From Scilla litardierei (Eukaryota; Streptophyta; Magnoliopsida; Asparagales; Asparagaceae), in NCBI GenBank assembly GCA_030789695.1, contig CM061134.1, forward strand, positions 62,317,334 to 62,381,333: a DNA stretch of 64,000 nucleotides, written 5' to 3'. Shown here in pieces: positions 3,133 to 56,847 of this stretch; within the stretch, counting starts at the first letter, position 1, and each line of letters begins with the position of its first letter. The notes beneath the pieces were generated by a model that made no database searches, was not told where the DNA came from, and saw only the letters and a list, made by a program, of their open reading frames with translations. The position numbers and the translations under genes are program-made.

Positions 3133-3543
3133 ACTAGTCGGTCAAAGAAGGACCACTGACTGACTAGTTCATCAACTAGTCGGTCGGTCAATCAACATGA
3201 ACCGACTAAGAGGTGAACAGTGAATAGATGAAGTTCAGACTTAAAGAACTAGTCGGTCCAAGAAGACTTGCCAACCGACTAGTTTCACAACTAGTCGGTC
3301 GGTGAGTGTTCATAGACCGACTAACAGAAGAAATATACTAGTCTAAATAGAAGTTGAATTAGTCGGTCCAAGAACAAAGTCTAACCGACTAGTTCATCAA
3401 CTAGTCGGTCGACAAATGTTCTTTGACCGACTAATGATAAACAGTAACTTGGGCTGTTCAGGGAAAGCTCAACTAGTCGGTCTAAGAAGGATTCCTAACA
3501 GACTAGTTTCACTACTAGTCGGTCGGTGAACCTTCTTTGACCG
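3133..3543 (-). repeat. AGTCGGTC dyad array, first part, in the left LTR of A
   Basis: These are four units of about 114 bp with paired AGTCGGTC half-sites. The array is cut at 3543 by element C and resumes at 12875-12999. It sits upstream of the minus-strand TATA box. Confidence 0.9.
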
Positions 3544-5416: not shown

Positions 5417-5479
<63 letters not shown>

Positions 5480-12700: not shown

Positions 12701-12874
12701 AGAATAGACTTTTTAAATAATTCACTAGAAAGGATAAGAATAAAAATAATAATTTTTGAAAAGAATAGAAATGGGTACGGGTTCGGGTTCGTTACGACTT
12801 AACTACGGATACGAAGAAGGATAAACACTCGGAGGAAAAACGGTTAAAACGCATCGTGAAAACTGGTCGTTACA
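9707..12874 (-). repeat. LTR of element C (right copy)
   Basis: Begins TGTAACGCCCC at 9707 and ends GTCGTTACA at 12874, matching 3544-6746 almost base for base. Confidence 0.93.
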
Positions 12875-12999
12875 GACCGACTAACTGTAAACAGTAAGTG
12901 AGCTAGAATTGAAGAAGGCAAATTAGTCGGTTCAAGAAGCTTTGCCGACCGACTAGATCACCATCTAGTCGGTTGGTTCTTCTTCTTGAACCAACTAAC
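12875..12999 (-). repeat. AGTCGGTC dyad array, second part, in the left LTR of A
   Basis: This continues the array broken by element C. The end of unit four and the whole of unit five match 23350-23475 in the other LTR. Confidence 0.88.
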
Positions 13000-13399
13000 A
13001 TGCACAAGAAGTCGCGATCGAAGCGCGAAGCTTCGGAAAAGTTCGTATGGACTTCTACTAAGATCCTAGCTCTAAGATATGAGCGTTATGAAGATTAAAA
13101 CGTAAGACCTACTCAAGGCTTAACATTCTACGGAACAAAGCTAAAAGACTATAAATAAAACTTGACGAACCGTCTACGAAATCTTCGATCGAATCTTCAT
13201 GACTTCTATAATGGTCCTTGAGCTTCAACGAATCTTCAAGCACACGATCACGCGTATTGACAAGTCTTGAGACGTCGCTTTGGATGTTCATAGAAAGTTG
13301 GCGACGATCTCCATAACTGCACTCACAAAGAGTTTGTTCACAATATATTTATGTTTGTTCATCATCCAAAACCAAATCCGGGGAGTCCAATACTCAACA

Positions 13400-13413
13400 T
13401 TCTCCCCCTTTTT
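13400..13413 (-). promoter_or_regulatory. Polypurine tract of element A
   Basis: On the minus strand AAAAAGGGGGAGAA directly precedes the start of the 3' LTR (TGTTGAGTATT). This is the expected site for plus-strand priming. Confidence 0.88.
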
Positions 13414-14329
13414 GGTGATGACAAACCAATATAAATAATAATAAAAAATAATGATTCGATTGAAATTTACTTACTCCCCCTGCATTGATGACCGTTAATT
13501 CCAAAATAATTAATATTCATACGCATCAAGCAGACGAGTAAAGTAAAACATGAGATTTCAATTATTGAAATATCGGATTTGAAATCCATTTTGATATCTT
13601 AACTCCCCCTGAATCTAACATATCAAATTAGATTCACGGTAAATTGCTTTGAATTATCATTAGCACATCATTATTATTAATTCTCTCCCCCTTTGGCATA
13701 AGCAAAAAGAGCGGGAGGAGATCAATGACAACAATGACTAAAAATTAAAGCACGGGAGTCGAAGAATATGACCACGGTTCAAATGACACCAAAGAAAAAT
13801 ACGAAGTAAATCAAAGCGTGTCAATGTGACCTTAGTCGATAATCAAAAAACGAAATCATCAAAACTCAAATAAATTTTACGAATTGAGTTATGGAATATA
13901 CTCTCCAATATCAACATTCTTGGTTAATTTAGTGCATGGAAAACAATTCTATGTTTCCATAGAAATAATTTCTATTTAACCAAGTTATTATCATCGAGCG
14001 ACGAAATCAAACATCAAAGGCAATAATATAATGTGCACAAGAAATAAATGTCAACATCGATGTATATATATATATGAACCATGGGTACATCAAAAGTATA
14101 CATCACCAACATACATAAACGATCCTCAGATCGAGTCACAAAATACAACATCATATCGCAACAGATATCAGAGTATCACAAAACATACAAAAATCTCAAA
14201 ACTCCATATGAGATACATCAAAATACATCCAAAAGTATCAAAAATCATAACCACCCTCTATCCTACCCAACTCTCTCACACTACAAGATCTATCATCCAA
14301 AGTGCACTAGGAGAGTCCTCCAAAGAAGC
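13414..14329. other. 3' untranslated region of element A
   Basis: AT-rich, non-coding on both strands apart from antisense noise. It holds repeated CTCCCCC words, as does the same part of element G near 41057. Nothing else is seen. Confidence 0.6.
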
Positions 14330-15887
14330 TCAGTAGGCAGCAGGAGGATCTGCAGTAGCAGCAGGCTCGACGGAAGGAGTGGTCACTGGGTCAGCAGGAG
14401 TGGAGATCTCTGGCACGACAGGAGTGGTCTCGGGAGCAGCAACAGACGAAGCATCCACCGGAGGAATGGTGGCAGCAGGTTTTGCTCTCGGGATCACCGG
14501 CAGAAGAAACAGCAGCACCAGAAGTACCCTCAGTGGCATGAGCAGCAGCAATACGAGCAAGCTCCTCGATCTCATCCTCATCCAACTCATCCTCGTCAGA
14601 AACTGACGGAGGGATATCAATCCCTAAGTGAGATGCGATGCGAGCGAGAATCTCCTCAGATCGAGCACAACGAGACTCTACACGTTTCAACGAACGTGCG
14701 AGCTCAGCAAGAGTGGGAGAGGGAGCATGAGCAACTGAGGCAGAGGCTGAAGCAGAGGGGGTCGTCCTCTGAACGTGACGAAGCGCCGCAAGAGACTTCT
14801 TGATGGCCGTCGCATTCAGAGGGGAACCGAGGGGACGCTCATCATTGGGAGGAAGAGGGACACGGAAGTGACGGAAGACAAGAGTCAATTTGCACGGGTA
14901 CGGAATGTGGGCCGACTTGGTGGACTTTCGAATACATTCGAAGGAGTCCATCTTGTCGAGAATGATCCATGCCCAATTGATCTCACTCCCCATGAAGACG
15001 GTGTAAATGAGTTTGAGGAATGGCTGGGAAGGCAAGGAAGATGAACCGTACTTCGGAAGGAGGCACAACTTCAGAATGAGGTTAAGCACCCAAGCATTCG
15101 GCTTGAAGGACTTCAAAGGGACGCCAATCATGGCAGGAGGGATGACATGGAAAATCTCGGCGAGCATCACCTGATCAAGCTCAAAAATATCGTCGACAGA
15201 AATATCGGAAGGAAGAAGGCCAGACGAGGAGACACCTATCAAATCCCCTAAGATTTCTGCCGTGAGGACTATCAAGGTCCCCAAGACAGTCGTCTCAATG
15301 GAATGGGTCTCGTCGTACTGACCCCGGACACGGTTCGTGTAGAATAGCTTGACAAGGCGAGGGTATGGATGTGGATTCGCCTTAGGGTCATATCGAAGAT
15401 AATCGATAAGGCCACTAGACGAAAGAAGATCGGCTAGGTGAGGGAAGTCAGAGAACTAAACGAAGTGCTCCAACAGCAGAGGACAGTGCTCGATACGGTT
15501 ATAAGCCGCGAGACATAACGGGTCATCGCGACACAATGAAATATCGACACCGCCAACTGGCATCGGAGCCTTCCCCTTAGGCTGACGTGTGCTAGATTGG
15601 GGTGGAGGAGTAGGATCCCGAGCGGTATGCTCGGTCTCTGGAATATATTCCGTGTCGGAATTAGAGGGAGGTGTGGGAGCATGGAATGAAGCTGGAGACA
15701 CGGGTTGTTTCCTAGGCTGAGATCTAGGCTTGGCGGTCGCCGTCCTCTTCTTCTTAAGAGGAGGCGAAGACGACGAAGGATGGGTGGTCTTGGAACGGCG
15801 TTTGGGTTGCGGGGGGTCCGTAAAAGGTGATTCGACAGTCATAGGTGACGGATGTGAGGGATCGATCGGTATACGTGTTCTTGCCAT
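14330..15887 (-). pseudogene. ORF2 of element A (extra 3' ORF, 'env-like' / plant transposon protein type)
   Basis: The likely start is the ATG at 15885-15887 (protein begins MARTRIP). The order is: a basic Pro/Ser-rich N-terminus with PKRRSK and LKKKRTA clusters that look like nuclear localisation signals; a helical globular core with NPHPYPRLVKLFYTN and EILGDLIGVSSSG; a helix with INWAWIILDK; then a coiled coil around LARSLKRVESRCARSEEIL and an acidic, Ala/Pro/Thr-rich tail. One in-frame TAG lies at about 15454-15456, and a frameshift near 14490 displaces the last 50 or so codons. SIRE elements are known to have an ORF here, often called env-like, but I see no signal peptide or membrane segment in this frame. 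The layout matches ORF2 of gypsy elements B and J. Function unknown; the basic N-terminus suggests a nuclear protein. It lies about 300 bp downstream of the internal dyad array. Confidence 0.75.
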
Positions 15888-16195
15888 AAGCGCGACGAGA
15901 CACAAGAAATCAACTAGTAATCGAAAGATCTGAAACCCTAAACACAAACCCTAAGAACAACCCTAGGCCGAAACCCTAGCAATAGAAATCGATTGGAAGT
16001 TGATAGACCTAACCCTAGAAGCTGAAATCAAGCCATAGGAGCAGTGAAAGAGGGAGGAGATTCACCTAGGGAGGAGATAGGGGAGATCCACGGCTGGAGT
16101 TGGTCGGAAAGACGACCGGAGATCGACAGACAGCGGCGGAGGGAGAGGGGAAGTCGAAGGGTTTTCGGGGGGGGTTGAGCTGGAGAAGAGATAAC

Positions 16196-16467
16196 ACCGA
16201 CTAGAAGGAGAATAAGTCGGTTAGATGGAGTATAAGTCGATCGAAATGCGAAAAGACCAAGCAGTCCCCGTTGCATTTAGTCGGTCACAGTTCAAGCGCT
16301 GACCGACTAGATGACGATCTAGTCGGTCGGCCAATGAGCTTGAACCGACTAAGTGCAAACAGTAACTGAAGCCAAAATTTAGGGCTTGAGTTAGTCAGTT
16401 TGAGTTCATTCACTGACCGACTAGATGATGATCTAGTCGGTCGGTCAATAAACATGAACCGACTAAC
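16196..16467 (-). repeat. Internal AGTCGGTC dyad array upstream of ORF2 in element A
   Basis: There are two full units (from about 16275 and 16391) and extra half-sites at 16196-16240. They carry the same motif and the same paired arrangement as the LTR array, but their spacers differ from it. The array lies between the RNase H end (16720) and the ORF2 start (15887). No clear TATA box follows it. Confidence 0.88.
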
Positions 16468-16719
16468 AGAGTTCAAAAATTTTAGAATTTGAAATTTTGA
16501 GTTCTCTCCTAATCGCACTTGGACGAAACATCGTAATACTCTCATTAATCATTATACTACCCCATTAAACATCGAAAATCTTAAATTTGACGTTCATGAA
16601 TAAATCGAGCATAAATTCCGAAAATTCAACGAAAAATCCAGAAAATTCCAATAAATCTAGCATGCTCAAATATAACGAAATTGAATAGCATGCAAGATTA
16701 TTGAACAAAAATATGAATC

Positions 16720-17492
16720 CTAAATCTCGGATTCACCCATAATCCCCAATTCTCGACGCAACCGCACAAAGGAGTCTTCCTTTAGGGGTTTCGTGAAAAT
16801 ATCGGCGATTTGTTTCTGGGTTTCAACGTACACTAATATGATGTCCTTTTTATCAACATGATCATCTAAGAAATGGTGACGGACATCTATGTGTTTCGAA
16901 CGGGAATGGTGTATCGGATTATTAGAGAGACATATTGCACTTTGGTTGTCCACCATGATAGGGCAAGTATCATAGTTTACACCAAAGTCTTTAAGAGTGT
17001 GTCTCATCCAAAGAACCTGAGCACACGCGGCACCAGCGGAAATATATTCCGCCTCGGTGGTTGAAAGTGATACGGAATTCTGCTTCTTGGAAAACCAAGA
17101 GACAAGAGAATTTCCTATAAAATGGCAAGTGCCACTAGTACTTTTCCTGTCGGATTTGCATCCCGCATAATCTGTGTCACTATATGAGATTAACTCATAT
17201 GTGCTAGATTTTGGATAAAGTAATCCAAAATCAAGTGTGTAACTTAAATAATGGAAAATACGTTTTACCGCTACTAAGTGAGATTCCTTAGGTTGAGACT
17301 GATAACGAGCACATACACATACGGCAAACATAATATCGGGCCTACTTGCGGTAAGATATAATAAACTACCTATCATACCTCGATATAGACGAATGTCTAC
17401 ATCTTTACCGCCGTATCCTTACAAAGATGTGTAGTCGTGCTCATTGGAGTCTTCTTCCCGGAGGCATTCTCCATTCCAAATCGCTTTAGCAA
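16720..17492 (-). pseudogene. Pol of element A: RNase H domain and connection to RT
   Basis: This is the copia-type RNase H. The frame from 17376 shows MIGSLLYLTASRPDIMFAV, the connection motif; then SDTDYAGCKSDRKSTSG with catalytic Asp; STTEAEYIS with catalytic Glu; and DNQSAICLSNNPIHHSRSKH. The domain ends GIMGESEI at 16720. Between the RT stop (17493) and 17376 there is a TAG and a frameshift in the segment corresponding to the RT-RH tether. The domain itself is intact. It would degrade the RNA strand of the RNA/DNA hybrid during reverse transcription. Confidence 0.92.
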
Positions 17493-18896
17493 CTACACCG
17501 TGTACTTGGTTTGGTGGATGAAGATTGCATCGTTCATTTGGTGAATTTGGAGACCTAAGAAATACTTGAGCTCACCCATGTGGCTCATCTCAAATTGATC
17601 CTTCATCACATTAGAAAACTCTTCGCAAAGAGTGAAGTTAGTAGCACCGAAAATGATATCATCAACGTAAATTTGAACTAAAATTATATCATTATTTGAA
17701 TACTTAACAAATAATGTGGAATCAACTTCTCCCATTTTAAAACCTAAATCCAAAACAAAATTCTTTAGACGGTCATACCAAGCTCGAGGAGCTTGTCTCA
17801 AACCGTAAAGTGCTTTCTTAAGTTTGAAAACATGGTTTGGGAATTTTTCGTTTATAAAACTCGGAGGTTGAGAAACGTAAACTTCCTCAACAACATCTCC
17901 GTTTAAAAATGCACTTTTTACATCCATTTGAAAGAGTTTAAAATCTTTATGGCATGCAAAAGATAACAATAATCTAATAGATTCTAATCTAGCTACCGGA
18001 GCAAAGGATTCTTCGAAATCAATACCTTCCTCTTGCCGATAGCCTTGAGCTACTAACTGAGCTTTGTTCCGGACGACGATTTGGTTTTCGTCGGTCTTGT
18101 TCTTGAAAATCCACTTCGTTCCTATAACGGTGTGGTTCTTCGATGGCAATAGAACAAGCTCCCAAACTTCATTCCTCTCGAATTGAATGAGTTCCTCCTC
18201 CATGGCTAAGATCCAAGCACCATCTTCGCACGCTTCATTAATATTCTTTGGCTCAATCGAGGAGGTAAAGGAATAATGAGCGAAGTAGTTGACTTGAGGT
18301 CTCGTCTTGACACTATCAAGGATATTGCCAATGACTTGCTCATGAGGATGGTCACAAATGGTATGAAGCCGTTTGGGAATTCCCTGATCACTAGGAACAT
18401 TCTCAAAAGATTCATTAGTAGGGTTAGTAACATTAGAATCAATAGAATTAGAATTACCAATTGAATCACATAAGACATCCATGGAGTCATCATCATTAGT
18501 AATTCTAGTAGGCAAAAATCCTTCATTAAATGAAACATGAAGTGATTCCTCGATCGTTGAGGTTCGTTTGTTGTATATCCGGTAGGCTTTGCTACGGGAG
18601 GAATATCCAACAAATATCCCCTCATCGGATCTTGGATCAAATTTGTCCAAACTACCATACATGTTTTTAATAAAATATTTTGCACCGAAAACACGAAAAT
18701 GTTTAACTTGAAGCAATCTACCAAACAACAATTCATAACATGTTTGTTTAGTGCCGTGCCTTAAAAGTATCCTATTAAACACATAGCAAGCGGTATGTAC
18801 CGCTTCCGCCCAAAATTGATGGCCAAGTTGGCTATCATCAAGCATAGTGCGAGCACATTCCACTAGCGTCCTATTCTTTCTCTCAACAACACCATT
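17493..18896 (-). pseudogene. Pol of element A: end of integrase and reverse transcriptase
   Basis: The same frame as the integrase segment, after a single nonsense codon at 18897-18899. It starts with the integrase C-terminal part ([31 protein letters not shown]). The copia RT follows: [75 protein letters not shown] and the catalytic YVDD box in [12 protein letters not shown]. It ends in a TAG after HQTKYTV. RT copies element RNA into DNA in cytoplasmic particles. Confidence 0.93.
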
Positions 18897-19822
18897 TTAA
18901 GGAGGTGCACGAGGGAATGAAAAGGTGTGAGTAATACCAACTTCATCACAAAAAGTTGAGAAAGACTCATTCTCAAATTCCCCTCCATGATCACTACGAA
19001 TAGTGACAATGGTGGTTCCAATGAGATTTTGTACTTTCTTAACAAAAATTGTGAAGTTTTCAAAAGCATCATTTTTATTACTTAAGGAAAATACCCAAGT
19101 AAATATAGAAAAGTCATCAACGATGACAAGTCCATAACGTGCATTTCCTAATGAAGCAACTCTAGTTGGCCCAAAAAGATCTAGATGTAAAAGCTCTAGA
19201 GGCCGCTTAGAAGAAATGCTTTTCTTAGGTTTAAATGACGATTTTGGAAGCTTGCCTCGTTGACACGAGTCACAAAAGCTTTTCTTTTGAAAGACTAGCT
19301 TAGGGAAGCCTCTAATAGAATTTAACTTGGAAAGTTTAAAGAATGTTCCGAAGTTCACATGACCAAAACGTCGATGCCATAAGTGTTGTTCACTTGTGTT
19401 GGCAATGAGACATTGTTCATGTGATCTTGGAAGATCTAGAATATATATATCCTTATGGCGTGTGCCGGAAAATAATAAATCATTATTATCTTTTCTCAAA
19501 ATATGGCACATTCCTTTCGCAAAACTAACTTTGTAACCTTTGTCACAAAGTTGGCTTATTGAAATAACATTGTGGTTTAATCCTTTAACAAGGTAAACAT
19601 CACTTATAAATGGTTTAGAAGGATTAGCCACTTTTCCAACACCTATGATGGTTCCGCTCTCGTTGCCTCCAAAGACTACCCGATTTCCATTTGCAATGGG
19701 CACCACTCCGGAGAGCAATTGAGCGTCACCCGTCATGTGTTTTGAACACCCGCTATCGAGTATCCAATTATTCTTGGAGCTAAATTTAGATTTGTTGCTC
19801 CTTTTCTTTTTCTTGAGTACCT
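18897..19822 (-). pseudogene. Pol of element A: protease C-part and integrase core
   Basis: The frame opens after a stop at about 19822. The protease active site DSG occurs in NWILDSGCSKHMTGD just before 19736. The GAG-pre-integrase region and the integrase zinc finger follow (HLWHRRFGH ... CDSCQRGK, an HHCC pattern). The catalytic core shows LLHLDLFGPTR (first Asp), VIVDDFSIFTWV and IRSDHGGEFENES (second Asp and Glu). The frame ends at a TAA where most copia integrases read a Gln codon (after FPRAPP), consistent with a CAA to TAA mutation. Confidence 0.92.
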
Positions 19823-20049
19823 AAAGATAGAAAATATCGTATCATGGTACCCAAGGTCATTGGGTCCAAAAAGATTAGACCTTTGGAAGCCAAGTCCAAT
19901 TGGACTTAGACTTTCCCACATAATTATCACTATGCACGACATTCATAAAATAAGAATTCATATAAACTTGTTTTTCCATTCATGCTTGTGTCCTTTGGGC
20001 TCTAAATAGTGAAAATTTTGGGAGCCCTAATCCTATTGGGAGCATGCAT

Positions 20050-21148
20050 GCGTTGTTGATTTCTACATGATGCATGTCGTGGATAGGCATAAGGCATATG
20101 ATGAAATGGTGCATGATGATACTTATTCATATGATGATGTGGGTGAACATATGCATGTGGAGGAACACGTGCGTGAGGGTGTCACACATGGTGTGCACGT
20201 GCCTGTGGATGTGTAGCATAAAAATCATCATATGTGTGAGCCGGTTGAGTAGGATGTGTGTTCCTACGTGGCATGGTATTGGTGTACATGTAGGCATGTC
20301 CCTTCTTTGGAGGTCCACCCACAGTGGGTTTCTTTCCAAACGAGGGTGTGTACGAGGAGGAAGCACCATTAGTAGATGAACTACCAATAGAGTGTTTGCT
20401 ACCACTCGTTGAAGCATCGAAAGTTGGCCTAACAAAGGTAGTGGCCGATTTGGATGAACTTCCCATCTTATACCCCAAGCCAATGTGGTGATTGGACGGA
20501 AGTAAGTCATTTAGGATTTTATCCAAATGGTCCTTACCCTTATTGAATTTATTAATACGGCCTAATGTGCACTCATATTTCTCGGTGAGAGGATGCATCG
20601 AAGCATCCAAAGTGGATACTTGTGATGTGAGTGCATAAACACGAGATTTGATTCTCATTCTCGATACTCAAAGTTGAGTTCTGACAAGTCAAATCTGCTA
20701 TCTCATGTTCATCCGATTCCTCAATATGAACATGTTCAAGTTGAGACTTGAGATTTACAATCTCATTTCTTAACTCTTCAACAACGGTGTCGTTGTTGGT
20801 GATGATAGTTTTAGGCGAGGTTTGGATGCTAGCTAAATCATCTTTTACTTTAGTATATCTATTTACCAATTTAGTGTATTTAGACCATATTTGCTCATTA
20901 GCATTTCTAAGGTCATCCATTGTTACCTCATCGCCTTCATTGTCACTATCATCGGAGGAGGAATCTTTATCTTGCTCCTCTCTAGCCATGAAGCACGTGC
21001 GTGCTTGCTCCACTTGCTCATCGTCTGACTCTCCATTTGAGGAATCCTCGGAGTCGGTGAATGTCCCGACAAGTCCCTTTTTGTACCCTTTCTTGTACTT
21101 CTTCGACTTGTCGAACTTCGGCGCCTTCCACTTCTCCTTGTGTTTATT
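20050..21148 (-). pseudogene. Element A: gag C-terminal coiled coil and His-rich linker (frameshifted)
   Basis: Two frames continue gag after its TAA. The first (from 21148) is acidic (DSSSDDSDNEGDEVTMDDL) followed by a long heptad-like coiled coil (VEELRNEIVNLKSQLEHVHI). A frameshift near 20650 leads to KGKDHLDKILNDLLPSN and GLGYKMGSSSKS. After another stop near 20180 the sequence is rich in His, Pro and Tyr (VHPHHHMNKYHH). Element G has the same succession of parts, with a longer His-rich section. Confidence 0.75.
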
Positions 21149-22114
21149 TTAAGGACAATCTGCTTTCATGTGTCCTGGCTTATTGCATTTGAAACACAAA
21201 GGAGAGGAGGCGTTAGTAGAACTAAACTTCGATTTGTTTTTGAAGTTACCTTTCCGGAAGAACCGGTTGAACTTCTTTTCCATGAGGGCAATAGATTCAA
21301 AGTCCAACTCCTCTTCTGATTCTTCATCATCGATAGATGTGGATGTAGATGGAGCGGCCATGAACGCAATCGCCTTTTTCTTTGGCTCGTCTTGCTTCAA
21401 GTAGGACTTCATTTTGTCCTGCAACTTTAGTTTGCTATCCTTAAGTACCTCATAAGACATTAAGGTACCCATTAGTTGTACGACAGTATATGTTTTCATG
21501 TCATTACCTTCCTCGATGGCGAATGTACGTTTCTCCCAACAAGAAGGAAGTCCATCGATGATCTTCGAGACTTTCTCCTTTTGGGTGTAGGTTTTCCCAA
21601 GAGCCTCCAACTCGTTGGTGATGTCGACGAAGCGAGCATAGTACTCCTTCATCTTCTCACCCTGTAGCATATGAAATAACTCGTAATCTTTATTTACTAC
21701 TACGAGTTTGGAGTCTCTTACCCTACTCGTCCCTTCATGCAAGATAAGGAGGGAGTTCCATATTTGATATGCACTCTTACATGTGCATATCTTATTGAAG
21801 TCCTCGGGCTCCAAGGCGCATTGCAAGGCGTTCATTGCCTTGGCATTGCTTACCTCCGCGGTGACCTCCGAGGTAGTCCACTTCTCGAAATCTTCTTCGG
21901 CGGGCTCGACATACTCCTTCATCGTGGCTCTCCATAGTGAAGCACTCCGGAGGAAAGTTTCCATCCGGCATTTCCAGTACCCGTAATTGGTACCGTTGAA
22001 GAAGGGAGGCCTCGTTGAGGAGTGTCCTTCCATCACCGAAGAAGCTCCTTCACGGTTCCTGAAGGTGCTATAATCTGAAGGTGGACGAACGGTCTTGTTG
22101 TCGTTGGTAGACAT
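21149..22114 (-). CDS. gag: Gag of element A (copia type)
   Basis: 321 codons from ATG 22114 to TAA. N-terminal part: STRPPFFNGTNYGYWKCRM, the DUF4219-like start of copia gag; middle: the UBN2-type gag polypeptide with AYQIWNSLLILHEGT and MLQGEKMKEYYARFVDITNE; C-terminus: a zinc knuckle CFKCNKPGHMKADC (CX2CX4HX4C). The TAA directly follows the knuckle. In element G the frame runs on at this place, so the stop probably truncates a longer gag, although it leaves the capsid and nucleocapsid parts whole. Gag forms the intracellular virus-like particle and binds genomic RNA. Confidence 0.93.
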   Translation of the reverse strand: MSTNDNKTVRPPSDYSTFRNREGASSVMEGHSSTRPPFFNGTNYGYWKCRMETFLRSASLWRATMKEYVEPAEEDFEKWTTSEVTAEVSNAKAMNALQCALEPEDFNKICTCKSAYQIWNSLLILHEGTSRVRDSKLVVVNKDYELFHMLQGEKMKEYYARFVDITNELEALGKTYTQKEKVSKIIDGLPSCWEKRTFAIEEGNDMKTYTVVQLMGTLMSYEVLKDSKLKLQDKMKSYLKQDEPKKKAIAFMAAPSTSTSIDDEESEEELDFESIALMEKKFNRFFRKGNFKNKSKFSSTNASSPLCFKCNKPGHMKADCP

Positions 22115-22126
22115 AGCTAGGTACTT

Positions 22127-22139
22127 GGCTTTGATACCA
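22127..22139 (-). promoter_or_regulatory. Primer-binding site of element A (initiator tRNA-Met type)
   Basis: On the minus strand TGGTATCAAAGCC starts two bases after the 5' LTR. It matches the usual copia primer site TGGTATCAGAGC with one mismatch, complementary to the 3' end of tRNA-iMet. Confidence 0.9.
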
Positions 22140-22870
22140 AATGTAATGCCCTACGTAGCTACTGCACAAGTACTAGGGGGGTGAATAGTACTTTAAAATA
22201 ATTAAGAAGATAATTCCTAATATCTTGCAAACTCTACCAACATTGCGGAAATGCGGAAATGTAAATAATGACAACAAAGAAAACAATCGCAAACAAGCAA
22301 TTTAACGGGTTCGGATCCACCCAAGTCTCCCTGACTTGTTCCCGGTGATCCTACGTCCCAACCACCCGGATCCCCTCCGGATACTTGAGTTAGAAACTTC
22401 TAACTCAAATTTGCACTATGAAATAATTGTAGAAAATCTCTACAAAGTCAAATCATACACAAATCAAATTGTGACTCCCACAACCCGGAATCACAAACAA
22501 ACTCTCACAACCGAGAGTAAAACACTTACAATATGAAAGTAAATGAAATACGAAATTGCTTACCACAAAATACATATGCCTTGAGTATACTTACGAATTA
22601 GGACAAAGATGATTTTGGGGAAGATGAAGGCACCAAACCCTAGCTCCAAGTAGATGACCAGCAATGGAGTCCTAGGTGGATGTTGGTGACCTAGAATCAA
22701 GCACTTGGCTTGGAAGGCTCACAATCAATGAATCTCTCTTTTGAAATAAGAGTGAGGGAGAGATTCAAGATGAGAAATGAATGAGCTTTGAATGAGAATG
22801 AATGCCTCTCTTTGATTCTCTAAAGTTCAATAAATATCAGCCTTGAATGCTATGAATGCAGCACTCCAAG

Positions 22871-22880
22871 TATATATAGG
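22871..22880 (-). promoter_or_regulatory. TATA box of the 5' LTR of A
   Basis: CCTATATATA on the minus strand, about 65 bp downstream of the last array motif. The same box is present in the other LTR at 3062-3070. Confidence 0.75.
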
Positions 22881-22943
22881 ATAGAAGAAAGAGAGAGCAA
22901 AATTCGTGGCATTTAATGCTCCAACGGCTCTATTCTGAAACAG

Positions 22944-23475
22944 ACTAGTCGGTCAAAGAAGGACCACTGACCGACTAGTTCATCAACTAGTCGGTCGGTC
23001 AATCAACATGAACCGACTAAGAGGTGAACAGTGAATAGATGAAGTTCAGACTTAAAGAACTAGTCGGTCCAAGAAGACTTGCCAACCGACTAGTTTCACA
23101 ACTAGTCGGTCGATGAGTGTTCATAGACCGACTAACAGAAGAAATATACTAGTCTGAATAGAAGTTGAATTAGTCGGTCCAAGAACAAAGTCTAACCGAC
23201 TAGTTCATCAACTAGTCGGTCGACAAATGTTCTTTGACCGACTAACGATAAACAGTAACTTGAGCTATTCAGGGAAAGCTCAACTAGTCGGTCTAAGAAG
23301 GATTCCTAACCGACTAGTTTCACTACTAGTCGGTCGGTGAACCTTCTTTGACCGACTAACTATAAACAGTAAGTGAGCTAGAATTGAAGAAGGCAAACTA
23401 GTCGGTTCAAGAAGCTTTGCCGACCGACTAGATCACCATCTAGTCGGTTGGTTCTTCTTCTTGAACCAACTAACA
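22944..23475 (-). repeat. AGTCGGTC dyad array in the 5' LTR of A
   Basis: Five units start at 22944, 23059, 23169, 23283 and 23397 (spacing 110-117 bp). Each has four half-sites in the order AGTCGGTC, GACCGACT, AGTCGGTC, GACCGACT, with short spacers, and a roughly 40-bp linker often containing AAACAGTAA. That makes about twenty half-sites per LTR. Confidence 0.93.
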
Positions 23476-23875
23476 TGCACAAGAAGTCGCGAATCGAAGC
23501 GCGAAGCTTCGGGAAAGTTCGTATGGACTTCTACTAAGATCCTAGCTCTAAGATATGAGCGTTATGAAGATTACAACGTAAGACCTACTCAAGGCTTAAC
23601 ATTCTATGAAACGAAGCTAAAAGACTATAAATAAAACTTGACGAACCGTCTTCAAAAGCTTCGATCGAATCTTCATGACTTCTATAATGGTCCTTGAGCT
23701 TCAACGAAGCTTCAAGCACACGATCACACGTATTGAGAAGTCTTGAGACGTCGCTTTGGATGTTCATAGAAAGTTGGCGACGATCTCCATAACTGCGCTC
23801 ACAAAGAGTTAGTTCACAATATATTTATGTTTGTTCATCATCCAAAACCAAATCCGGGGAGTCCAATACTCAACA

Positions 23876-25057
23876 GGATATCCTGCACGCCTAAGTGGGC
23901 GACAGGGGAAGGTGTTCTCGAAGCGCCCTGGGGAATGAATGGAAGACAGAGCCCCTCCATAAACTCGAGATCGGGAGGAAATGTCCAATCTGCCGCCAAA
24001 GCAATAGTCATGCGAGCGGGGTTGGGCAGAATGGTATAGGGAGATGGGGGGTGTCTGTAATGGAAGGTGAAGCGACCATCGGGGTGGGGCTTAATCATGT
24101 GAATATGCCACAGGACGTCGAGATCTAGACGTAAGGGTCCTGCGGCAGTGGGAAGGTCTCGGGGGATGACAATGTTAAATCAGGGAGCAGAAACTATGAT
24201 CGTGATAAGGCCCTCGCAACAAAGCATGCCCTTGTCGGCACGACTAATCTCCAGAAGCTTGGAAACAAGCCAAGCACCGGTATGGACATGAACGGTAGGG
24301 GCCCTAACAGAAATCCCGTCATCACCCCGAACGAAGGGAAAGGTCATGGCCCAAAGAATGAAGAGATCAGGGATGGTCACGGTACCTGACTCATCCCTGG
24401 AGAAAACGTGGAAGAAATGATTCGGTGGGCCAGACGGAAGATGGGGTGAATTATGGAGGAGGCCTTGGCCTTACCTCGGGGATAGTCAGGGTGAAGGGTG
24501 AGGCGGAACCAAAACTGATCGACGTCAAATTCGGGGGGATGCCCGGAGGGGCGGATAGCGTCGTCCCCAACGATGGGGAAACCAAAGATGTTATTAATTT
24601 CATTTAGGTGGGTGCGAATAGTTCTGTTACAGACGCGGAAGATGACGATCGACCCTGACTCACAGACAAGTGTGGATAGAAATTCGAGTGTGAGGGAGGG
24701 GTAGGACACCGCGGTGGCGTTTAGGAAAGCTAACCAACCTAAATTGGCAAAGAGAGTATCAACCTCGGTGAATAGGCCAAGATCGATAAGCATTTGGGTG
24801 TGGGTGAATTTGGTCGATAGATGCTCCCGAGCATCAAGTCTATAATAGAAATCTTTATGCTCCTGGTTCATAAAGCGGTATCCACGTGGGCCCATTAGTG
24901 GGTCCTCAACTGGGATCATAGGTTGGGGTTGGGGTTGGGGTTGTGGAGGTTGTGCAGAAGGAGGGCGTGAGTGTGGTGGACGTGTAGTCTTGCGTCTCTT
25001 GCGAGACGACCCCTCCTCTCGCATGATACTCTTACCCCTATCTTGATCCCGAGCCAT
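23876..25057 (-). pseudogene. ORF2 of element B (extra 3' ORF, N-terminal and core part)
   Basis: Starts at ATG 25057 (MARDQDRGK). N-terminus: basic cluster SSRKRRKTTRPP, a likely nuclear localisation signal, then a Pro/Gln repeat. Core: EHLSTKFTHTQMLIDLGLF, LTLEFLSTLVCESGSIVIF, THLNEINNIFGFPIVG, KASSIIHPIFRLAHRI, IPDLFILWAM and HMIKPHPDGRF. A frameshift lies near 24395 and an in-frame TGA near 24178. Element A interrupts the gene at 23876, and it resumes at 2324-2069. The core matches ORF2 of element J and resembles the domain that Pfam describes as a putative plant transposon protein in Athila-type elements (from memory, not searched). Function unknown. It sits 430 bp downstream of its own TATA box and dyad array. 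Confidence 0.75.
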
Positions 25058-25487: not shown

Positions 25488-25497
25488 TTATTTATAG
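25488..25497 (-). promoter_or_regulatory. Internal TATA box before ORF2 of element B
   Basis: CTATAAATAA on the minus strand, about 14 bp downstream of the nearest array motif and 430 bp upstream of the ORF2 ATG. This suggests that ORF2 has its own transcript. Confidence 0.65.
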
Positions 25498-25510
25498 GGT
25501 TTAAGTCGAA

Positions 25511-25852
25511 CCTATCGGGTGAAATGTCATCCGATCGGTTGACTTTTAGGTCGAAAAATTTGCTGAAAATTGGCTACAGGCGAAACGACCGGGTGACATT
25601 TCACCCGATTGGTTGGCTGCTCCACACTTTTTCTCGAAAGTTTAGTACAGCTCACCCGATCAGTCACCCGACCACGCTTTGTATCAACCGACCGGTTGAT
25701 CAATTCCCCAAAATTCCCGAGACTTCTGCACAGCTCAAACAGTCTGCCACCCGGTCTAAGCTTGCTTCATCCGACCGGTTCGTTGGAGCTCAGATACGGC
25801 CATTGTCTGATACGTCTCACCCGATCGGTTGAGTAATCACCCGATCGGGTGA
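25511..25852 (-). repeat. Internal CACCCGATCGGGTGA-type dyad array of element B
   Basis: At least eight full or partial copies, for example ATCCGATCGGTTGA at 25529-25542, CACCCGATTGGTTG near 25602, AACCGACCGGTTGA near 25686, CACCCGATCGGTTGA near 25818 and the perfect CACCCGATCGGGTGA near 25838. The motif also occurs in the LTR of the same element (29940-30392), while the flanking sequence does not match. Confidence 0.88.
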
Positions 25853-25859
25853 GGGCTTG

Positions 25860-26070
25860 TTTCCTGTAAAAATTTACAAATGGCCTAAGTCTCTCGACGG
25901 ATGATCCCGCGGCTGAATTTAATTATTAAAGTAGAAAAAATAAAGATAATAAAAATCCTAAAAATAAAGATAAGAGTTTAGAGCATGGGTTGCCTCCCAT
26001 GAAGCGCTTTTGTTTAACATCGTTTGCTTGACGCCCGTAGGTGATATTCAAGGTGGACGGGGGTGATGCC
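25860..26070 (-). other. Non-coding spacer of element B with conserved Athila-type block
   Basis: Around 25990-26040 the minus strand reads AACAAAAGCGCTTCATGGGA then GGCAACCCATG. A very similar block is common after pol in Athila/Tat elements. In B it directly follows a linker after protease, which marks the place where RT, RNase H and integrase are missing. Confidence 0.6.
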
Positions 26071-26445
26071 CTAAAGTCGGCATCGCTTCAGATTCAGAGT
26101 TGGCGGCCTTCGGTGTCTTCGACGGTGGCAAGAAAAGTTGCTCGACGACCCTCCCTTTGTTGACGGGATCCGGGGCTTCTCCCTTATATTGGCGTCTACC
26201 GCCACTCGTTTCAGGATCCGAATCTCTTCTCCGGTGAGCCCCATGGGCTCTTTCCCTTTCCTCCTCGCCGGAGGAGCATTTAGAAATCCGGGAGGGACCG
26301 TGTGTGCCGCATCCGCTTTTCCAGCAACGTCGTATTTCTTCAGGCCGACTGGTTCTTCTAAGTCCCCCAAGCTATCGGGGGGATTTCTTGAAAGAATTTC
26401 CCTGGAGCTTGCTTCCACAACTCTCTCTTCTTCTAACTCCAGCAT
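26071..26445 (-). pseudogene. Element B: post-protease linker, truncated pol
   Basis: A charged frame (CNMLELEEERVVEASSREIL and onwards) follows the protease in another frame. It has no RT signature (no DYRKLN, no FMDD box) and ends in TAG near 26070. It is probably the stretch between protease and RT, joined to the very end of pol by a deletion. Confidence 0.55.
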
Positions 26446-27044
26446 ATTGCATCTTGGATCATCCGGGGATTGGGGTGCTTCATTGACAACCCTAAGTCAA
26501 ACTCGACTTTTTCGTTGCCGACGTTAAGGGAAAGCTTTCCATTCTTCACATCTATTAAAACGCCGGTAGTGGCCATGAAAGGCCGTCCAAGGATGATGGG
26601 GGTGTGCGCATCTTCAGGCATGTCTATGACGACGAAGTCCACCGGCACATGCACCCCACTTACGTTGACAGGGAGGTCATCTACAACCCCCATCGGATAT
26701 TTGACCGATCGGTCTGCGAGCTGTAAGGTCATACCGGTGGGCTCCAAGTCGCCCATCCCTATCCTCTTATACAGCGACATGGGCATTAAACTGACGCTCG
26801 CTCCAAGATCGACGAGCGCACAATGGATCTTTACCTCCCCGATCGCACAAGGGATAGAGAAGCTCCCCGGATCTTTAAGCTTAGGCAGATTTGCTCTCTG
26901 AATGGGAGCGTTGCATTCCGTCGTCAATACGACCGTCTCCTTTCTGGACCCTCTTGTCACCAAATCCTTTAGAAATTTTGCATAGGAGGGAATCGTCTCG
27001 ATAGCTTCGAGGAAGGGGATGTGCAAGCTTATATCCTTGACCAT
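26433..27044 (-). pseudogene. Aspartic protease of element B
   Basis: The retropepsin-like domain contains CALVDLGASVSLMP, where DLGA stands at the catalytic DTGA/DSGA position, and PIILGRPFMATTGVLIDV, the usual second half (ILGRPFL). DLGAS is common in Athila proteases. The upstream frame (27044) shows IPFLEAIETIPSYAKFLKDL and LPKLKDPGSFSIPC, typical of the gag-protease junction in this lineage. Start and frame are uncertain because of nearby stops. Confidence 0.85.
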
Positions 27045-27232
27045 GGCAAAGAATTTGCCATACTTCTTGTCTATCTTGGCTTGGGCTAGCCATTATGGAA
27101 AAGCCACAACGGGCTTGAATACTTTGAGGCTCCCTTCCTCGGTTTTCTTCTTCTCCTCTTCAGGGACTCCCTCCGGAGTCGTTTGCCTTGGCAACGAAGC
27201 ACCGTCGTCATTCAATTTTTCAATTGGTCGCT

Positions 27233-28774
27233 CTACGACCAACGGTGCTTCCGGTTCCTTTGGGGCACTCTTGTGGGGATTTGTGTCCCGCTTCTCAATA
27301 CGATAGCGGACACATTTGCATTCTCGTGCGTGAGTGCCAAAGTCTGATTTGCTCCCCTCGGGTTCACTTCAGGTTGTGGCGGCAATAGATTCTGCGACCT
27401 ATGAAGGTTCGCCACTTGTAACCCCAGCCGGGTCACCTGATCAGTGAGAGCCCTCTGCCTCATCTCCAGCTTCAAATTTATCTTCTCCTGGTTGGTGATG
27501 TATTGAGTCAAGAGGGACTCAACCGGAGAGATGGCCCTCTACTGGCCATATTGCTGCTACTGAATGGGCTGTTGATTCCTGGGAGCATATTGTTGATACT
27601 GTTGTGGAGGCTGCTGCTGCTGAACTGCTGCTGCTGAGGCCTAGCCGGCTGATATATTAGCTGCTGTTGTTGCTGAGGAGGAGGCTGCTGATACGACGCC
27701 CGGTAGCTAAGGTTGGGGTGGTTCTGGTTATTTGGAGAGTAGGCCGGATTGGAGCTAGTCCGTGGTGGATACGGTGCATTTCTCATAGGATTGTAGAATA
27801 GTGCGCTCGCTTGGTCCAACGGAGGTAAGATGTCACCACCCTCGAAGTCTCCCATGACTTCGGATTCCACCGCCGTAATATGTTGTGTACCGGTGCCAAC
27901 GGCTCCTACCATTAGCGCGGAGATCTTGGTCGACAGCAAGTCAAACTTGCTGGATAATTTGTCGACGTCCTCGACCCTGTGGATGCCCCCAGATCTAGGT
28001 GTGGCTCTCTCGTCACACCACCGCTCATTGTTCGATGCCATATTTTCTAATATGTTCCCGGCATCTTCTTCACTTTTGGACATGAAGGACCCCCCAGCCG
28101 CGACGTCAATCGATGATTTTAAATCATCTCTTAATCCGTTGTAGAACAGATTAATTATCTGCCACTTGGGAAGCTCGTGATGAGGGCATCTTCGCTGCAT
28201 CTCTTTAAATCTTGTCCAAGCTTCATGCAGGGACTCGTGACTGGCTTGGGAGAAGGAGGAGATCTCTCTCCTCAGCTTCATAGTCTTCCCTGGAGGAAAG
28301 AAATTAGTCAGAAAAGCATTTGAAAGATTCTCCCAAGTGTTGAACGTATTTGGGTCCTTCCCCCTAAGCCACAGCTTGGACTTATCTCGCAGAGAGAAGG
28401 GGAATAGCTTCAGACGGATCGCCTCTGTTGTGACACCATTTATCCGGAAGGTGTCACATTTCTCCAAGAAGGAGTCCAAATGTTCGATGGGGCTCTCCAT
28501 GGGTGCCCCCCGAGAATTGACCCTGCTGGATCCACGTCACCAAATATGGCTTAAGCTCGAAGCTTGGCACCGTAATAGCAGGAGGACGGATGGCGGAGGT
28601 GGACTCGATGGATGGCATCGAGTACTCCAGCAGGGATTTATGAGGTGTGGTGTTCTCCCCCATGTCTTCGGGCTCTTCGCTTCTCCGCTTCTCTGCGGCT
28701 AAATGCCTTAGGGTGGCGTTTATCTCCGGATCAACAGGAATCAATTCGTCGAGACTCCTTGAACTCCTGCGCAT
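27233..28774 (-). pseudogene. gag: Gag of element B (Ty3/gypsy, Athila-like)
   Basis: Likely start MRRSSRSLDEL at 28774. The gag core (retrotransposon gag domain) reads PIEHLDSFLEKCDTFRINGV, AIRLKLFPFSLRDKSKLWL, TWENLSNAFLTNFFPPGKT and ELPKWQIINLFYNGLRDDLK. A frameshift at about 28500 separates the N-terminus from the core. A Gln/Pro-rich tail follows, and in-frame stops interrupt it near 27520-27560. The last part (27511-27233) ends with NVSAIVLRSGTQIP, equivalent to the conserved LRSGK motif before protease. Gag would form the particle. Confidence 0.88.
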
Positions 28775-28944
28775 GAAAAGCAACAAACACCCGTGAAGCG
28801 AAAAGTGGGAAACAAACAGATAAAATATAAAACAAAAAATAAGAAAATAAAAACGAAAAAGAAGAATGCGAAAATTATCGCGAGATAGAGATGAGAGCTA
28901 GACTCAAGGGTTCATGAGATCCAAAAATAACAAGCACGTTGCCT

Positions 28945-28961
28945 CCCCGGCAACGGCGCCA
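28945..28961 (-). promoter_or_regulatory. Primer-binding site of element B
   Basis: TGGCGCCGTTGCCGGGG on the minus strand, 7 bp after the LTR end. This is the primer site typical of Athila/Tat elements. Confidence 0.9.
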
Positions 28962-29919
28962 TAAATCTTGACGTCCCCCGCGTTGTGCGTGTCAGATGTG
29001 TGCAATATATGGTTGGGGCGTGAGATGTAAATATTTATAACCGCAAGCGCACGGTGTTGTAGTATGGCTTGGGGTCAAACTCAGGAAGGCGTGGTTGTGC
29101 TTGTGTCAGAAAGGACCGGATTCACCCCATGGGTGAGCTAGCCCGAATCGGTAGATGGGTTGTCACGGAAATAGAATGCGATGGATAAACAATATAAAGG
29201 GAAACCCGGGACTTCGGTTTCCACCCTATCGTGCGATTCTCACCAATACGGCCTACAAGTAGGACAACGATCGGAATTAGGGTCTAATGGTGAGATGTTG
29301 TCTCTAAGAGTGATACCGGCGTCTCATGGGCCCGATATTCCGGTCGGTGCCCAGGATGATACGCCGAACTACCCGGGTTCGGTCAGTGGGCATTCCCATG
29401 TCCATTAACACTGACCGACTCCGGGAGCACTAAGCTCGCAATGATAACTCCCAACGTCTCATCCTGCCGCTCCCACGCGCTAGGATTCGACGTCTATGCT
29501 AAGGGCGTGAGCTATGGCTAGGGAGTCAACCGCCAAGTTTATTCCCCCTTGGCCCAACAGTCAAAGGTGGTCTTTTCCCACCGATGACAATGAAACACCC
29601 CGCGTAACCGATAGATTCCTAATCCCTATCGATTTCCTAGTCCTATGGACGCATCGGGGAGAACCCACGAAGGGGTTTCCACCAAAATCCCAGATTTGGG
29701 AACTACTCACACATATTAGGTAAAAAGCAATCTAAATGAAAATCGACCGTTAAAAGCATGATCAGGCGATTGAATAGTAGTAAGAGTAATGCAAATAACA
29801 CTATATTAAAGTTTGGTAAAGATCAGACAACTTACAAATATCTAGAAAATTACAGCCGTCAAGAGAGAGAAAAACAGCAAAAATAACAACTCTCCCCGTT
29901 TTCTGGAAACCTAGGGTCT

Positions 29920-29930
29920 CTATTTATAGA
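29920..29930 (-). promoter_or_regulatory. TATA box of LTR B
   Basis: TCTATAAATAG on the minus strand, about 10 bp from the nearest array motif. Confidence 0.75.
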
Positions 29931-29939
29931 AAACAATAT

Positions 29940-30392
29940 CACCTGATCAGGTGAAGAATCACCCGATCGGGTGACCTGATGCGAACTTCGACAGCAATCT
30001 TCAAAATTTCACCCGGTCAGGTGACACGGTCGGTTGGCGGAAGCTGCTCGTCGTTTGGATCTTGAGCGTCGTCGGGTGAACCGATCGGTTGATAAATCAA
30101 CCGATCGGTTGGAATTGTAGCCCAAAAATACAGAGACTGTCGACATTTTGGCACGGTCAGCCGGCCATCGGGTGAGCTCTCCGGGTCATCTTCTTCGGGG
30201 AAACGGCTACAGGAGAACCGATCGGGTGAAGATCACCCGATCGGTTGAGTATCAGCTCCAATTTCCAGAGAGAACAGTCGGGTTGAACCGGTCGGTGACC
30301 CGGTCGGTTGACACTTTCGTTGCTTCAGCGGCTGACCGGGTCATGCACGCGTGCATCACCTGATCGGTTGGCTGTGTCCAACCGATCAGGTG
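29940..30392 (-). repeat. CACCCGATCGGGTGA-type dyad array in LTR B
   Basis: About ten to twelve copies, for example CACCTGATCAGGTG at 29940, CACCCGATCGGGTGA near 29959, AACCGATCGGTTGA near 30079 and 30098, AACCGATCGGGTGA near 30216, CACCCGATCGGTTGA near 30233 and CAACCGATCAGGTG near 30379. Copies vary at the arms but mostly keep a CGAYCG core. Confidence 0.9.
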
Positions 30393-30639
30393 GGGGCTGA
30401 AAGATGGAGATCTCTGTCGTATGACCCCCTGATTCATGCGTGACTCTTCCCGTTGCTCCGGGGACTTATGATATCATCGTTAAACGTCCCCTATGCTCGC
30501 AAACTCCTGCAAACACGTAAAAACATGGAGAAGTGAAAGAAAACAAGAAAATACGAGAAAACGGATACGAGACGGGGGAAAATAACGGAAAAACACAAAA
30601 GAAAATGTGCATGAATATATGAAATATAAACGCACGTCA

Positions 30640-30754
30640 CTTCTCCACATATCTTTATGATTCTCTACATATCATTTGGTTTCACCCCCCCCCCCAAACA
30701 GCTACTTCTACCGCATCTATTTCCCAAAAATCCCCAAAGAAAAAGATTGCTTCC

Positions 30755-38669: not shown

Positions 38670-39850
38670 TGATGTGTCCATATTTTCTATCTTTTCATAG
38701 CATCGTTTCATTGCATTTCATGTCACATCCGCATCCAAATCCTGCATTTTCTTACGACATTGCACTTCTAACGCCGTATTCGAGTTTTGTAGAGTTTTGT
38801 GAATTTTCAGGGATTTTGGAGCGATTCGGAGCCATTTTGGGATATGGACACATCCAGCACGTCCATGAGTCCGTTGGCGAGGCTCTATAGGAGTTCGTTG
38901 AGGTTCGGAAGCATATGGGAGGAGAAGAAGAGAAGCTAGCAAGAGAAAGGAGTCTTTATGGATCTTTCCCAGGCGACTTGACCGAGTAGCTCAAGCTACT
39001 CGGTCGAGCTGATACACAAGCCCAGCAGAAAAGAGAATGCGCATCCTACTCGATCGAGCAGAGTGGTGACTTGACCCAAGTCGTTCCTATTTTTCGAGCT
39101 CCATTCCACCAACATCCTGCTCGACCAAGTAGGATCTACTCGACCAAGCCAGCAGACGACTCAACCGAGCAAGGCCTACTCGGGCCGAGTAGGCAGAGCG
39201 ACACTTTGGAAGGAGAGCCCCAATCTACTGACAGCTCGACCGAGTAGGCAGGCTACTCGACCGAGTAGCCCAGACCCCTTCACCCAGCCAGGAGCAGCTA
39301 AGGTGCCTACTCAATCGAAGCAGGCGTCTACTCGACCGGGCTGCTGGCTCGGTCGGCGACATGTGGGCCCCAAACTTCAGATTTTCGGATTTTTTCGTGA
39401 GGGCCCCACCTGGATGTATTAGAGGGAATTTTCCAGACCTTTTGGGAGAGCTGATTTTTTGAGTTTTTGAATTAAGCTTAAGAGTGAGATCTAAAACTAT
39501 TGTAATCTAGAACTAGGTTTTGGAATTGAGTCGTTCTTGGCTAAAGATTACATTTTTATTATCTCTTGCATCTTGGAATCTGCGGAAGTTCTTTGGATCT
39601 TTATTGGCTATCGTTCTTTCTCGTTTTCGATACATAAGATCTTTAATTCTCGCTCGAATCAATTGCTACAATGTTTTCTATGGTAAAAACTACATTTTTA
39701 TTTGTCGTAATTGCTGTGTGTGAGTAGTCTTCCCTAGGGCTGATGGGTTAGCCATAAGACTCTAGGAAGGAGATGTAGATCTGGATTTCTAGGTTGTGTT
39801 GGGAATAAAGGGAGAGTATTTTGGACAATCCATTCAAATCCCTAGGAGAA
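38670..39850 (+). repeat. LTR of element E (3' LTR, right end uncertain)
   Basis: Starts TGATGTGTCCATATTTTC directly after the polypurine tract, a start widely seen in Athila/Tat LTRs. It holds a dyad array (38974-39360), a weak TATA-like GTATTAGAGGG near 39416, and the segment TGTGTGTGAGTAG near 39714 that has a counterpart in LTR H (TTTGTGAGTAG near 57114). No primer site follows, so it is a 3' LTR. The right end is not clear and may be truncated. Confidence 0.7.
38974..39360 (+). repeat. CTCGACCGAGTAG dyad array in LTR E
   Basis: About ten copies of CTACTCGACCGAGTAG and its variants (TACTCGGTCGAG, CTACTCGGGCCGAGTAG, CTCGACCAAGTAG). They lie between the LTR start and the weak TATA-like sequence. 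Confidence 0.9.
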
Positions 39851-54619: not shown

Positions 54620-54635
54620 ATTATAATATCCATAT

Positions 54636-54637
54636 AT

Positions 54638-54693
<56 letters not shown>
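54636..54693. repeat. (AT)n microsatellite between LINE and Helitron 2
   Basis: Uninterrupted AT repeats; the 5' ends of both elements abut it. Confidence 0.95.
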
Positions 54694-56808: not shown

Positions 56809-56847
56809 TTGGGTCGGGTTTTTCTCGACCAGTTAGGATTTCTAATG

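What the first reader, a model, noticed from the sequence alone, without database searches (positions are those of the whole stretch)
25488..30392. Element B repeats this design with a different motif and an internal TATA box
B is a gypsy element, not copia. Its LTR array (29940-30392) and the array before ORF2 (25511-25852) share CACCCGATCGGGTGA-like dyads, and each is followed within about 10-15 bp by CTATAAATA. The sequences around the two arrays do not align. So two superfamilies show the same LTR-plus-ORF2-promoter pairing, each with its own motif. This is the strongest hint of an undescribed regulatory system in the window.
Basis: partly seen in the sequence, partly recalled or inferred. 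Interest (0 to 1): 0.88.

Follow-up and report, generated by a model that had tools for sequence, protein, structure and literature searches.

The report
Family-specific DNA locks in plant retrotransposons
Plant jumping genes of two different classes carry clusters of mirror-image DNA words both in their main promoter and in front of one extra gene, and where both clusters could be read they match within a family and differ between families, as if the extra gene's protein reads its own family's password.

Summary
Element B (minus strand) is a gypsy-type, Athila-like element with gag, protease and ORF2 but no reverse transcriptase. It has 12 dyads in its LTR and 8 before ORF2 (YSAMC-CGRYCG-GKTSR), each array ending 9 bp from CTATAAATA. 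Other copies in the 3.68-Gb host genome agree: internal array in 29 of 30 copies, 9-bp gap in 13 of 14 LTRs and 19 of 30 ORF2 promoters, LTR and internal arm profiles r=0.99. With dyads masked the two arrays do not align. A second Athila family (C; ORF2 29% identical to B's) has CACT instead of CACC/CAAC in both its arrays (half-site position -1: T in 46 of 46; B has C in 291 of 328). Two further gypsy LTRs carry CTACT and CCAC[G/A] versions. Dyads often form doublets about 21 bp apart. ORF2 is under purifying selection (dN/dS about 0.25).

The layout is published for Sireviruses (copia; Bousios 2010), so element A is not new. The Athila version, shared scaffold and within-family concordance appeared in none of my literature searches. 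Best explanation: ORF2 encodes a family-specific DNA-binding regulator of the LTR and its own promoter. No binding was shown; ORF2's fold is unknown; three families only show both arrays.

The parts
28969..30640 (-). B 5' LTR (right edge approximate)
   Evidence: Ends next to a tRNA-Asp-type primer site (tRNA recalled); pieces of it recur upstream of gag in other copies
29939..30393 (-). B LTR array, 12 dyads YSAMC-CGRYCG-GKTSR
29921..29929 (-). B LTR TATA box CTATAAATA, 9 bp from the last dyad
   Evidence: sequence; other copies
28944..28961 (-). Primer-binding site TGGCGCCGTTGCCGGGGA
   Evidence: sequence; match to tRNA-Asp is recalled
27508..28536 (-). B gag
   Evidence: PF03732, E 4.8e-23; dN/dS 0.22 in 15 copies
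26433..27092 (-). B aspartyl protease
   Evidence: PF13650; dN/dS 0.20 in 15 copies
25507..25852 (-). B ORF2-promoter array, 8 dyads of the same motif
   Evidence: in 29 of 30 genome copies
25489..25497 (-). B ORF2-promoter TATA box CTATAAATA, 9 bp from the last dyad
   Evidence: sequence
24377..25057 (-). B ORF2 (N-terminal part, cut by the insertion of A)
   Evidence: PF03078 ATHILA; dN/dS 0.25 in 30 copies
2325..23875 (-). Element A (copia) inserted in B's ORF2, itself interrupted by another insertion; GGATA on both sides (2320-2324, 23876-23880)
22945..23486 (-). A LTR array, half-sites TAGTCGGT/ACCGACTA alternating 24 and 18 bp
16190..16485 (-). A array before its ORF2, same half-site
14391..15455 (-). 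A ORF2 fragment, PF20167 Transposase_32
   Evidence: E 3.4e-12
1352..1887 (-). D LTR array with A's motif
38974..39343 (+). F LTR array, CTACT-CGRYCG-AGTAG, 9 dyads
56089..56811 (+). G LTR array, CCAC[G/A]-CGRYCG-[C/T]GTGG, 12 dyads
63025..63693 (-). C ORF2 fragment, PF03078; its promoter array lies just outside the window (L051 434-803)

Best explanation
Each family carries a two-part module. ORF2 encodes a nuclear, sequence-specific DNA-binding protein. Arrays of its dyad target sit upstream of the TATA box in the LTR (which drives gag) and in a separate internal promoter (which drives ORF2). The protein binds as a symmetric dimer, cooperatively on doublets about two helical turns apart, and switches on, or keeps unsilenced, the LTR and its own gene. 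The gypsy families share one target scaffold (CAC-x-CGRYCG-x'-GTG, TAC in F) and differ mainly in base x, so each protein acts on its own family. Shown: both arrays, their shared and family-specific base preferences, TATA spacing in B, doublets, purifying selection on ORF2. Inferred: that ORF2 is the binder, that binding is dimeric and cooperative, and that the outcome is activation or anti-silencing rather than repression.
For: LTR and internal arrays have the same tolerated bases at -5 to -1 (r=0.99; sites picked by core only) and no agreement beyond (r=-0.27), yet do not align when dyads are masked in B and two C copies. The base at -1 is C in B (291 of 328 half-sites), T in C (46 of 46), T in F (10 of 12), A or G in G (14 of 14). 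TATA box 9 bp from the last dyad in 13 of 14 B LTRs and 19 of 30 B ORF2 promoters. Doublets of 19-23 bp: 19 of 44 successive spacings in five gypsy arrays, about 3.6 expected. Whole genome: TCACNCGATCGNGTGA 9510 matches against 1 for the reversed control, all 50 listed sites symmetric at the free base; CTACNCGAYCGNGTAG 3783 and 3949 on the two strands against 19 and 18. dN/dS 0.25 for ORF2, 1.1 in the frame-shifted control. Basic N-terminal cluster SSRKRRKTT exact in 21 of 30 ORF2 copies.
Against: No recognised DNA-binding domain and no usable structure model (pLDDT 39 and 42). Both arrays were read in only three families (A, B, C); no ORF2 promoter was found for F or G. A and B ORF2 are not demonstrably related. 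Dyad positions in B's internal array are not significantly more conserved than the rest (48 of 336 shifts do as well). The LTR and internal arrays of B differ slightly at -1 (Fisher P=0.014). TATA spacing is not shared by other families: about 80 bp in the C LTR of L059 and 16-18 bp in C promoters (read). A-type arrays do not show the 19-23 bp spacing (1 of 49 in A and D).
Confidence: 0.58

Rival explanations
1. The dyads are binding sites of host transcription factors. The element keeps them in both promoters so that gag and ORF2 answer the same host signal; ORF2 is not the binder.
For: LTR boxes bound by stress-related host factors are known, and Bousios 2010 found such database matches for Sirevirus motifs (passages). 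No DNA-binding domain was recognised in ORF2.
Against: Four gypsy families in one genome use four versions of one scaffold, and in B and C the LTR and internal arrays changed together; a shared host factor would rather hold the motif constant. A host-factor family with several specificities would still fit.
Confidence: 0.22
2. The palindromes act as RNA hairpins, for example as small-RNA sources or RNA-processing signals, not as protein-binding DNA.
For: In maize Sireviruses an excess of small RNAs maps to palindrome clusters (Bousios 2016 as cited in PMC10760457; passages).
Against: A hairpin needs pairing, not fixed bases. Here the tolerated bases are shared between arrays, and no arm position shows a clear excess of symmetric pairs; at the A/C position symmetric sites are fewer than expected (15 against 24.8 of 52 in the internal array, 21 against 27.1 of 64 in the LTR). 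The arrays lie upstream of the TATA boxes in B.
Confidence: 0.08
3. No trans-acting protein is needed: the arrays are copied from one place to the other by conversion or recombination, so they stay alike within a family.
For: A's LTR and internal arrays and D's LTR share longer repeat units; with half-sites masked A and D LTRs still score above all 200 shuffles (29 against 25), A LTR against A internal does not (24 against 26).
Against: In B and in two C copies nothing outside the dyads is shared, which copying of segments would leave behind unless old.
Confidence: 0.1

Closest known systems
Repeated motifs of Sireviruses (Ty1/copia), Bousios et al. 2010, PMC2829016 (passages and section 9 read)
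   Same: Palindromic CGG-CCG motifs, element-specific, in the LTR upstream of a TATA box and in a second cluster upstream of the extra (ENV) gene.
   Different: B, C, F and G are gypsy-type; the dyads share one scaffold with a family-specific base, occur as about 21-bp doublets, and LTR and internal profiles were compared across copies; B lacks pol. No trans-acting factor is named in the passages read.
VANC anti-silencing proteins of VANDAL (Mutator-like) DNA transposons, Hosaka et al. 2017, PMC5735166 (passages read)
   Same: Element-encoded protein, short target motif repeated in the element's own non-coding regions, related families with different motifs.
   Different: LTR retrotransposons, palindromic targets next to TATA boxes in two promoters; binding and demethylation are shown for VANC and only inferred here.
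Retand antisense TRP28 ORFs, PMC11963269 (passages read), and Grande's accessory gene with its own promoter and nuclear product (title as cited there; not read)
   Same: Extra ORFs of plant gypsy elements suspected to be nuclear DNA-binding regulators.
   Different: Those are antisense to gag-pol; B's ORF2 is in sense. The passages read link no such ORF to a repeated target motif.
Athila ORFs with PF20167/PF03078, for example sunflower Athila 14, PMC11728184 (passages read)
   Same: The same Pfam families in Athila elements.
   Different: No promoter array or function is given in the passages read.

Membership tests
Athila-like Ty3/gypsy (element B) | gypsy-type gag and Athila ORF | tested here: met
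   PF03732 4.8e-23, PF03078 1.8e-12
Athila-like Ty3/gypsy (element B) | reverse transcriptase of the Athila lineage | tested here: not met
   No RT: protease and ORF2-promoter array are 564-597 bp apart in all 16 of 20 fetched stretches that hold a same-strand protease. B is filed as Athila-like and non-autonomous, not as a complete Athila
Sirevirus-type repeated-motif layout (what it works like) | palindromic motif array in the LTR upstream of TATA | tested here: met
Sirevirus-type repeated-motif layout (what it works like) | second array upstream of the extra gene | tested here: met
   B, C, A
Sirevirus (as a member) | copia-type polymerase | tested here: not met
   B has gypsy gag and no RT. 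Element A has copia RVT_2; its Sirevirus-specific marks (polypurine and primer sites) were not tested
VANC-like system (what it works like) | element-encoded protein binds the motif and removes silencing | not testable with these tools
   needs binding and methylation assays
VANC-like system (what it works like) | motif arrays in the element's own non-coding regions, different between families | tested here: met
VANC family (as a member) | sequence homology to VANC | tested here: inconclusive
   Pfam scan to E 10 gave only PF03078, PF20167 and a weak tRNA_bind_3 match; VANC itself was not compared

The most novel reading that the evidence does not exclude
Plant LTR retrotransposons of both superfamilies run a lock-and-key system: an accessory DNA-binding protein and a promoter-proximal array of its dyad target, used twice per element, whose specificity base changes in step in both arrays as families diverge. 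This would be a retrotransposon counterpart of VANC that lets families escape silencing, or regulate themselves, without cross-talk, and lets a pol-less family (B) persist as a regulated gag/protease/ORF2 element.
Probability: 0.48. Interest if true: 0.85.

Novelty: new variant of a known kind. Interest (0 to 1): 0.72.

Why it matters
The extra ORFs of Athila- and Sirevirus-type elements are common in plant genomes and are often called env-like or putative transposase without a demonstrated function (PMC7264820 part 1). A predicted target, read from the element itself and differing by mainly one base between families, makes their function testable by a simple binding assay. If confirmed, retrotransposons, like VANDAL DNA transposons, would use self-specific regulators, and the palindromic LTR arrays that attract small RNAs would have an explanation.

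Tried and rejected
Structure models of A's ORF2 (single sequence) and of B's ORF2 with C's (two sequences): pLDDT 38.7 and 41.8, not used for fold searches. Homologous-protein searches with B and A ORF2: no hit at E<=0.001. Viral-contig scans with both: no relatives. A-to-B ORF2 homology: no support by BLASTP or hhalign of B+C against A; a paper calls the two Pfam families related, which I could not confirm. Conservation of dyads in B's internal array: a first test was positive (P=0.0016) but its column choice was biased; the fairer shift test is not significant (48 of 336). The mask used for A covered 95-99% and is void; redone. Arm symmetry as evidence for hairpins: none clear. The genome search with Pfam PF03078 and the genome count of CCACNCGAYCGNGTGG did not complete.

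Literature: none of the listings of searches showed a report of such paired arrays in Athila or other gypsy elements. Subscription papers are not held; Bousios 2016 and Gomez-Orte 2013 were seen only as cited.

Rows dropped: the 30 B loci are the best of 150 scored. For LTR statistics 14 of 20 fetched B stretches were used (L033, L039, L048 nested or rearranged; L036, L040, L045 with no LTR array in the stretch). In one search, 5 of 30 ORF2 promoters gave no TATA distance: L024 has no array; in L001, L008, L018 and L023 the scan took a later weak match as the last dyad (my inference; L001 is the window copy, 9 bp by eye); 6 gave 7, 8 or 10 bp. For C, 4 of 150 scored copies were fetched, chosen among those without stops in the match: promoter arrays in 3 of 4 (with the window copy via L051, 4 of 5), C-type LTR arrays in 3 of 4 (the fourth stretch held a B-type array), both arrays in the same copy in 2 of 4.

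Full report
What is there. The window is nested plant retrotransposons at C5:62317334-62381333 of a 3.68-Gb assembly. Element B lies on the minus strand: LTR with array, primer-binding site, gag (PF03732), protease, array, ORF2 (PF03078). Its ORF2 is interrupted by element A, a copia element (2325-23875) flanked by GGATA on both sides. Other copies repeat B's order: of 20 upstream stretches fetched, 16 hold a same-strand protease, and in these 16 the first dyad of the internal array lies 564-597 bp after it, so there is no room for RT or integrase. B is thus a high-copy (150 scored ORF2 matches, a lower bound) pol-less family whose gag, protease and ORF2 are under purifying selection (dN/dS 0.22 and 0.20 in 15 copies, 0.25 in 30; frame-shifted control 1.1). 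The ORF2 copies were picked by protein similarity, which lowers their ratio; gag and protease were only required to align over 80%.

The dyads. In the window the two arrays hold 12 and 8 dyads; the pattern search gives 27 strand-matches against 0.12 expected, all in these arrays. The internal array is present in 29 of 30 genome copies. Taking sites by the 6-bp core only and reading the unselected flanks, LTR and internal arrays show the same preferences at -5 to -1 (T/C, C/G, A, A/C, C; r=0.99) and no agreement at -8 to -6 (r=-0.27), while other cores in the same stretches fit less well (r=0.63). At -1 alone the two B arrays differ slightly (84% and 93% C, Fisher P=0.014). With dyads masked the arrays share nothing above shuffles. 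CTATAAATA begins 9 bp after the last dyad in 13 of 14 LTRs and 19 of 30 ORF2 promoters (unscored rows in Tried and rejected).

Other families. C's ORF2 (29% identical to B's over 140 residues) has its promoter just outside the window, with 8 dyads of CACT type. The genome holds at least 150 relatives, 60-76% identical apart from the window copy. Of four further copies fetched, three have promoter arrays of this type and three have LTR arrays of this type; in two copies both were read in the same element. F (38974-39343) uses CTACT and G (56089-56811) CCAC[G/A]. The half-site base at -1 is C in B (133 of 158 LTR, 158 of 170 internal), T in C (14 of 14 LTR, 32 of 32 internal), T in F (10 of 12), A or G in G (14 of 14). 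C, F and G samples are small (16 and 7, 6, 7 distinct sites). In five gypsy arrays 19 of 44 successive spacings are 19-23 bp, about 3.6 expected; A-type half-sites instead alternate 24 and 18 bp. Whole genome: TCACNCGATCGNGTGA occurs 9510 times per strand against 1 for the reversed control; all 50 sites listed (the first of the genome) are symmetric at the free base (46 C, 4 T) and 8 pairs lie exactly 20 bp apart. CTACNCGAYCGNGTAG occurs 3783 and 3949 times on the two strands against 19 and 18; 97 of the 100 rows listed have T/A.

What it most likely does. A target that is non-homologous in position but alike in tolerated bases, present in both promoters of an element, close to TATA, and different in step in both places between families, is best explained by one trans-acting protein per family. 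ORF2 is the natural candidate: it is conserved, carries a basic N-terminal cluster (SSRKRRKTT exact in 21 of 30 copies), is served by one of the two promoters, and goes with the motif. That ORF2 is the binder is inferred. Whether binding activates, represses or protects from silencing is open; the place next to TATA and the retention in a multicopy family favour activation or anti-silencing.

Against. No recognised DNA-binding domain; no usable model; only three families with both arrays (A, B, C); A and B ORF2 not demonstrably related; no significant excess conservation of dyad positions within B; TATA spacing differs between families (about 80 bp in the C LTR L059, 16-18 bp in three C promoters, no match in a fourth, none within the C LTR stretches L060 and L061, none found before A's ORF2).

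What is known. The same layout was reported for Sireviruses by Bousios 2010 (passages, section 9), including clusters before ENV and a TATA box after the LTR cluster; maize Sirevirus palindromes attract small RNAs (passages). VANC proteins supply the functional precedent (passages). PF20167/PF03078 ORFs in Athila elements are described without function (passages), and Retand TRP28 ORFs are suggested to be DNA-binding regulators (passages). A 2026 paper asks whether ORFs of Athila elements shape their methylation and leaves it open (PMC12844716; passages). The Athila arrays, the shared scaffold with one family-specific base and the concordance of both arrays appeared in none of the listings searched.

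Scores.

Noticed in passing
window 24377-30640; L031-L050: B is a high-copy family that keeps gag, protease and ORF2 under purifying selection but lacks RT and integrase, so it must be mobilised by another element's pol (inferred).
   Followed up: partly
window 1-2066: Element D has an LTR end unlike A's (...GTCGTTACA) but shares A's U3 array (73% over about 650 columns), which could be an exchanged regulatory region between families.
   Followed up: partly
window 3544-12874: An element with about 3.1-kb direct repeats (probable LTRs, start TGTAACGCC) sits inside A's left LTR; no dyad array was detected in it by the repeat-word scan.
   Followed up: no
window 61428-62644: Near-identical 917-bp-spaced duplication (98% over 300 bp) within the C ORF2 region.
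   Followed up: no
window 49753-54859: Minus-strand ORFs of 1004 and 711 aa that look like a plant LINE; no domain search was made.
   Followed up: no
window 48121-48289 and 55080-55556: Tandem arrays with AATTTGTTGTTCCGCGCC-like units on both sides of the LINE-like ORFs.
   Followed up: no
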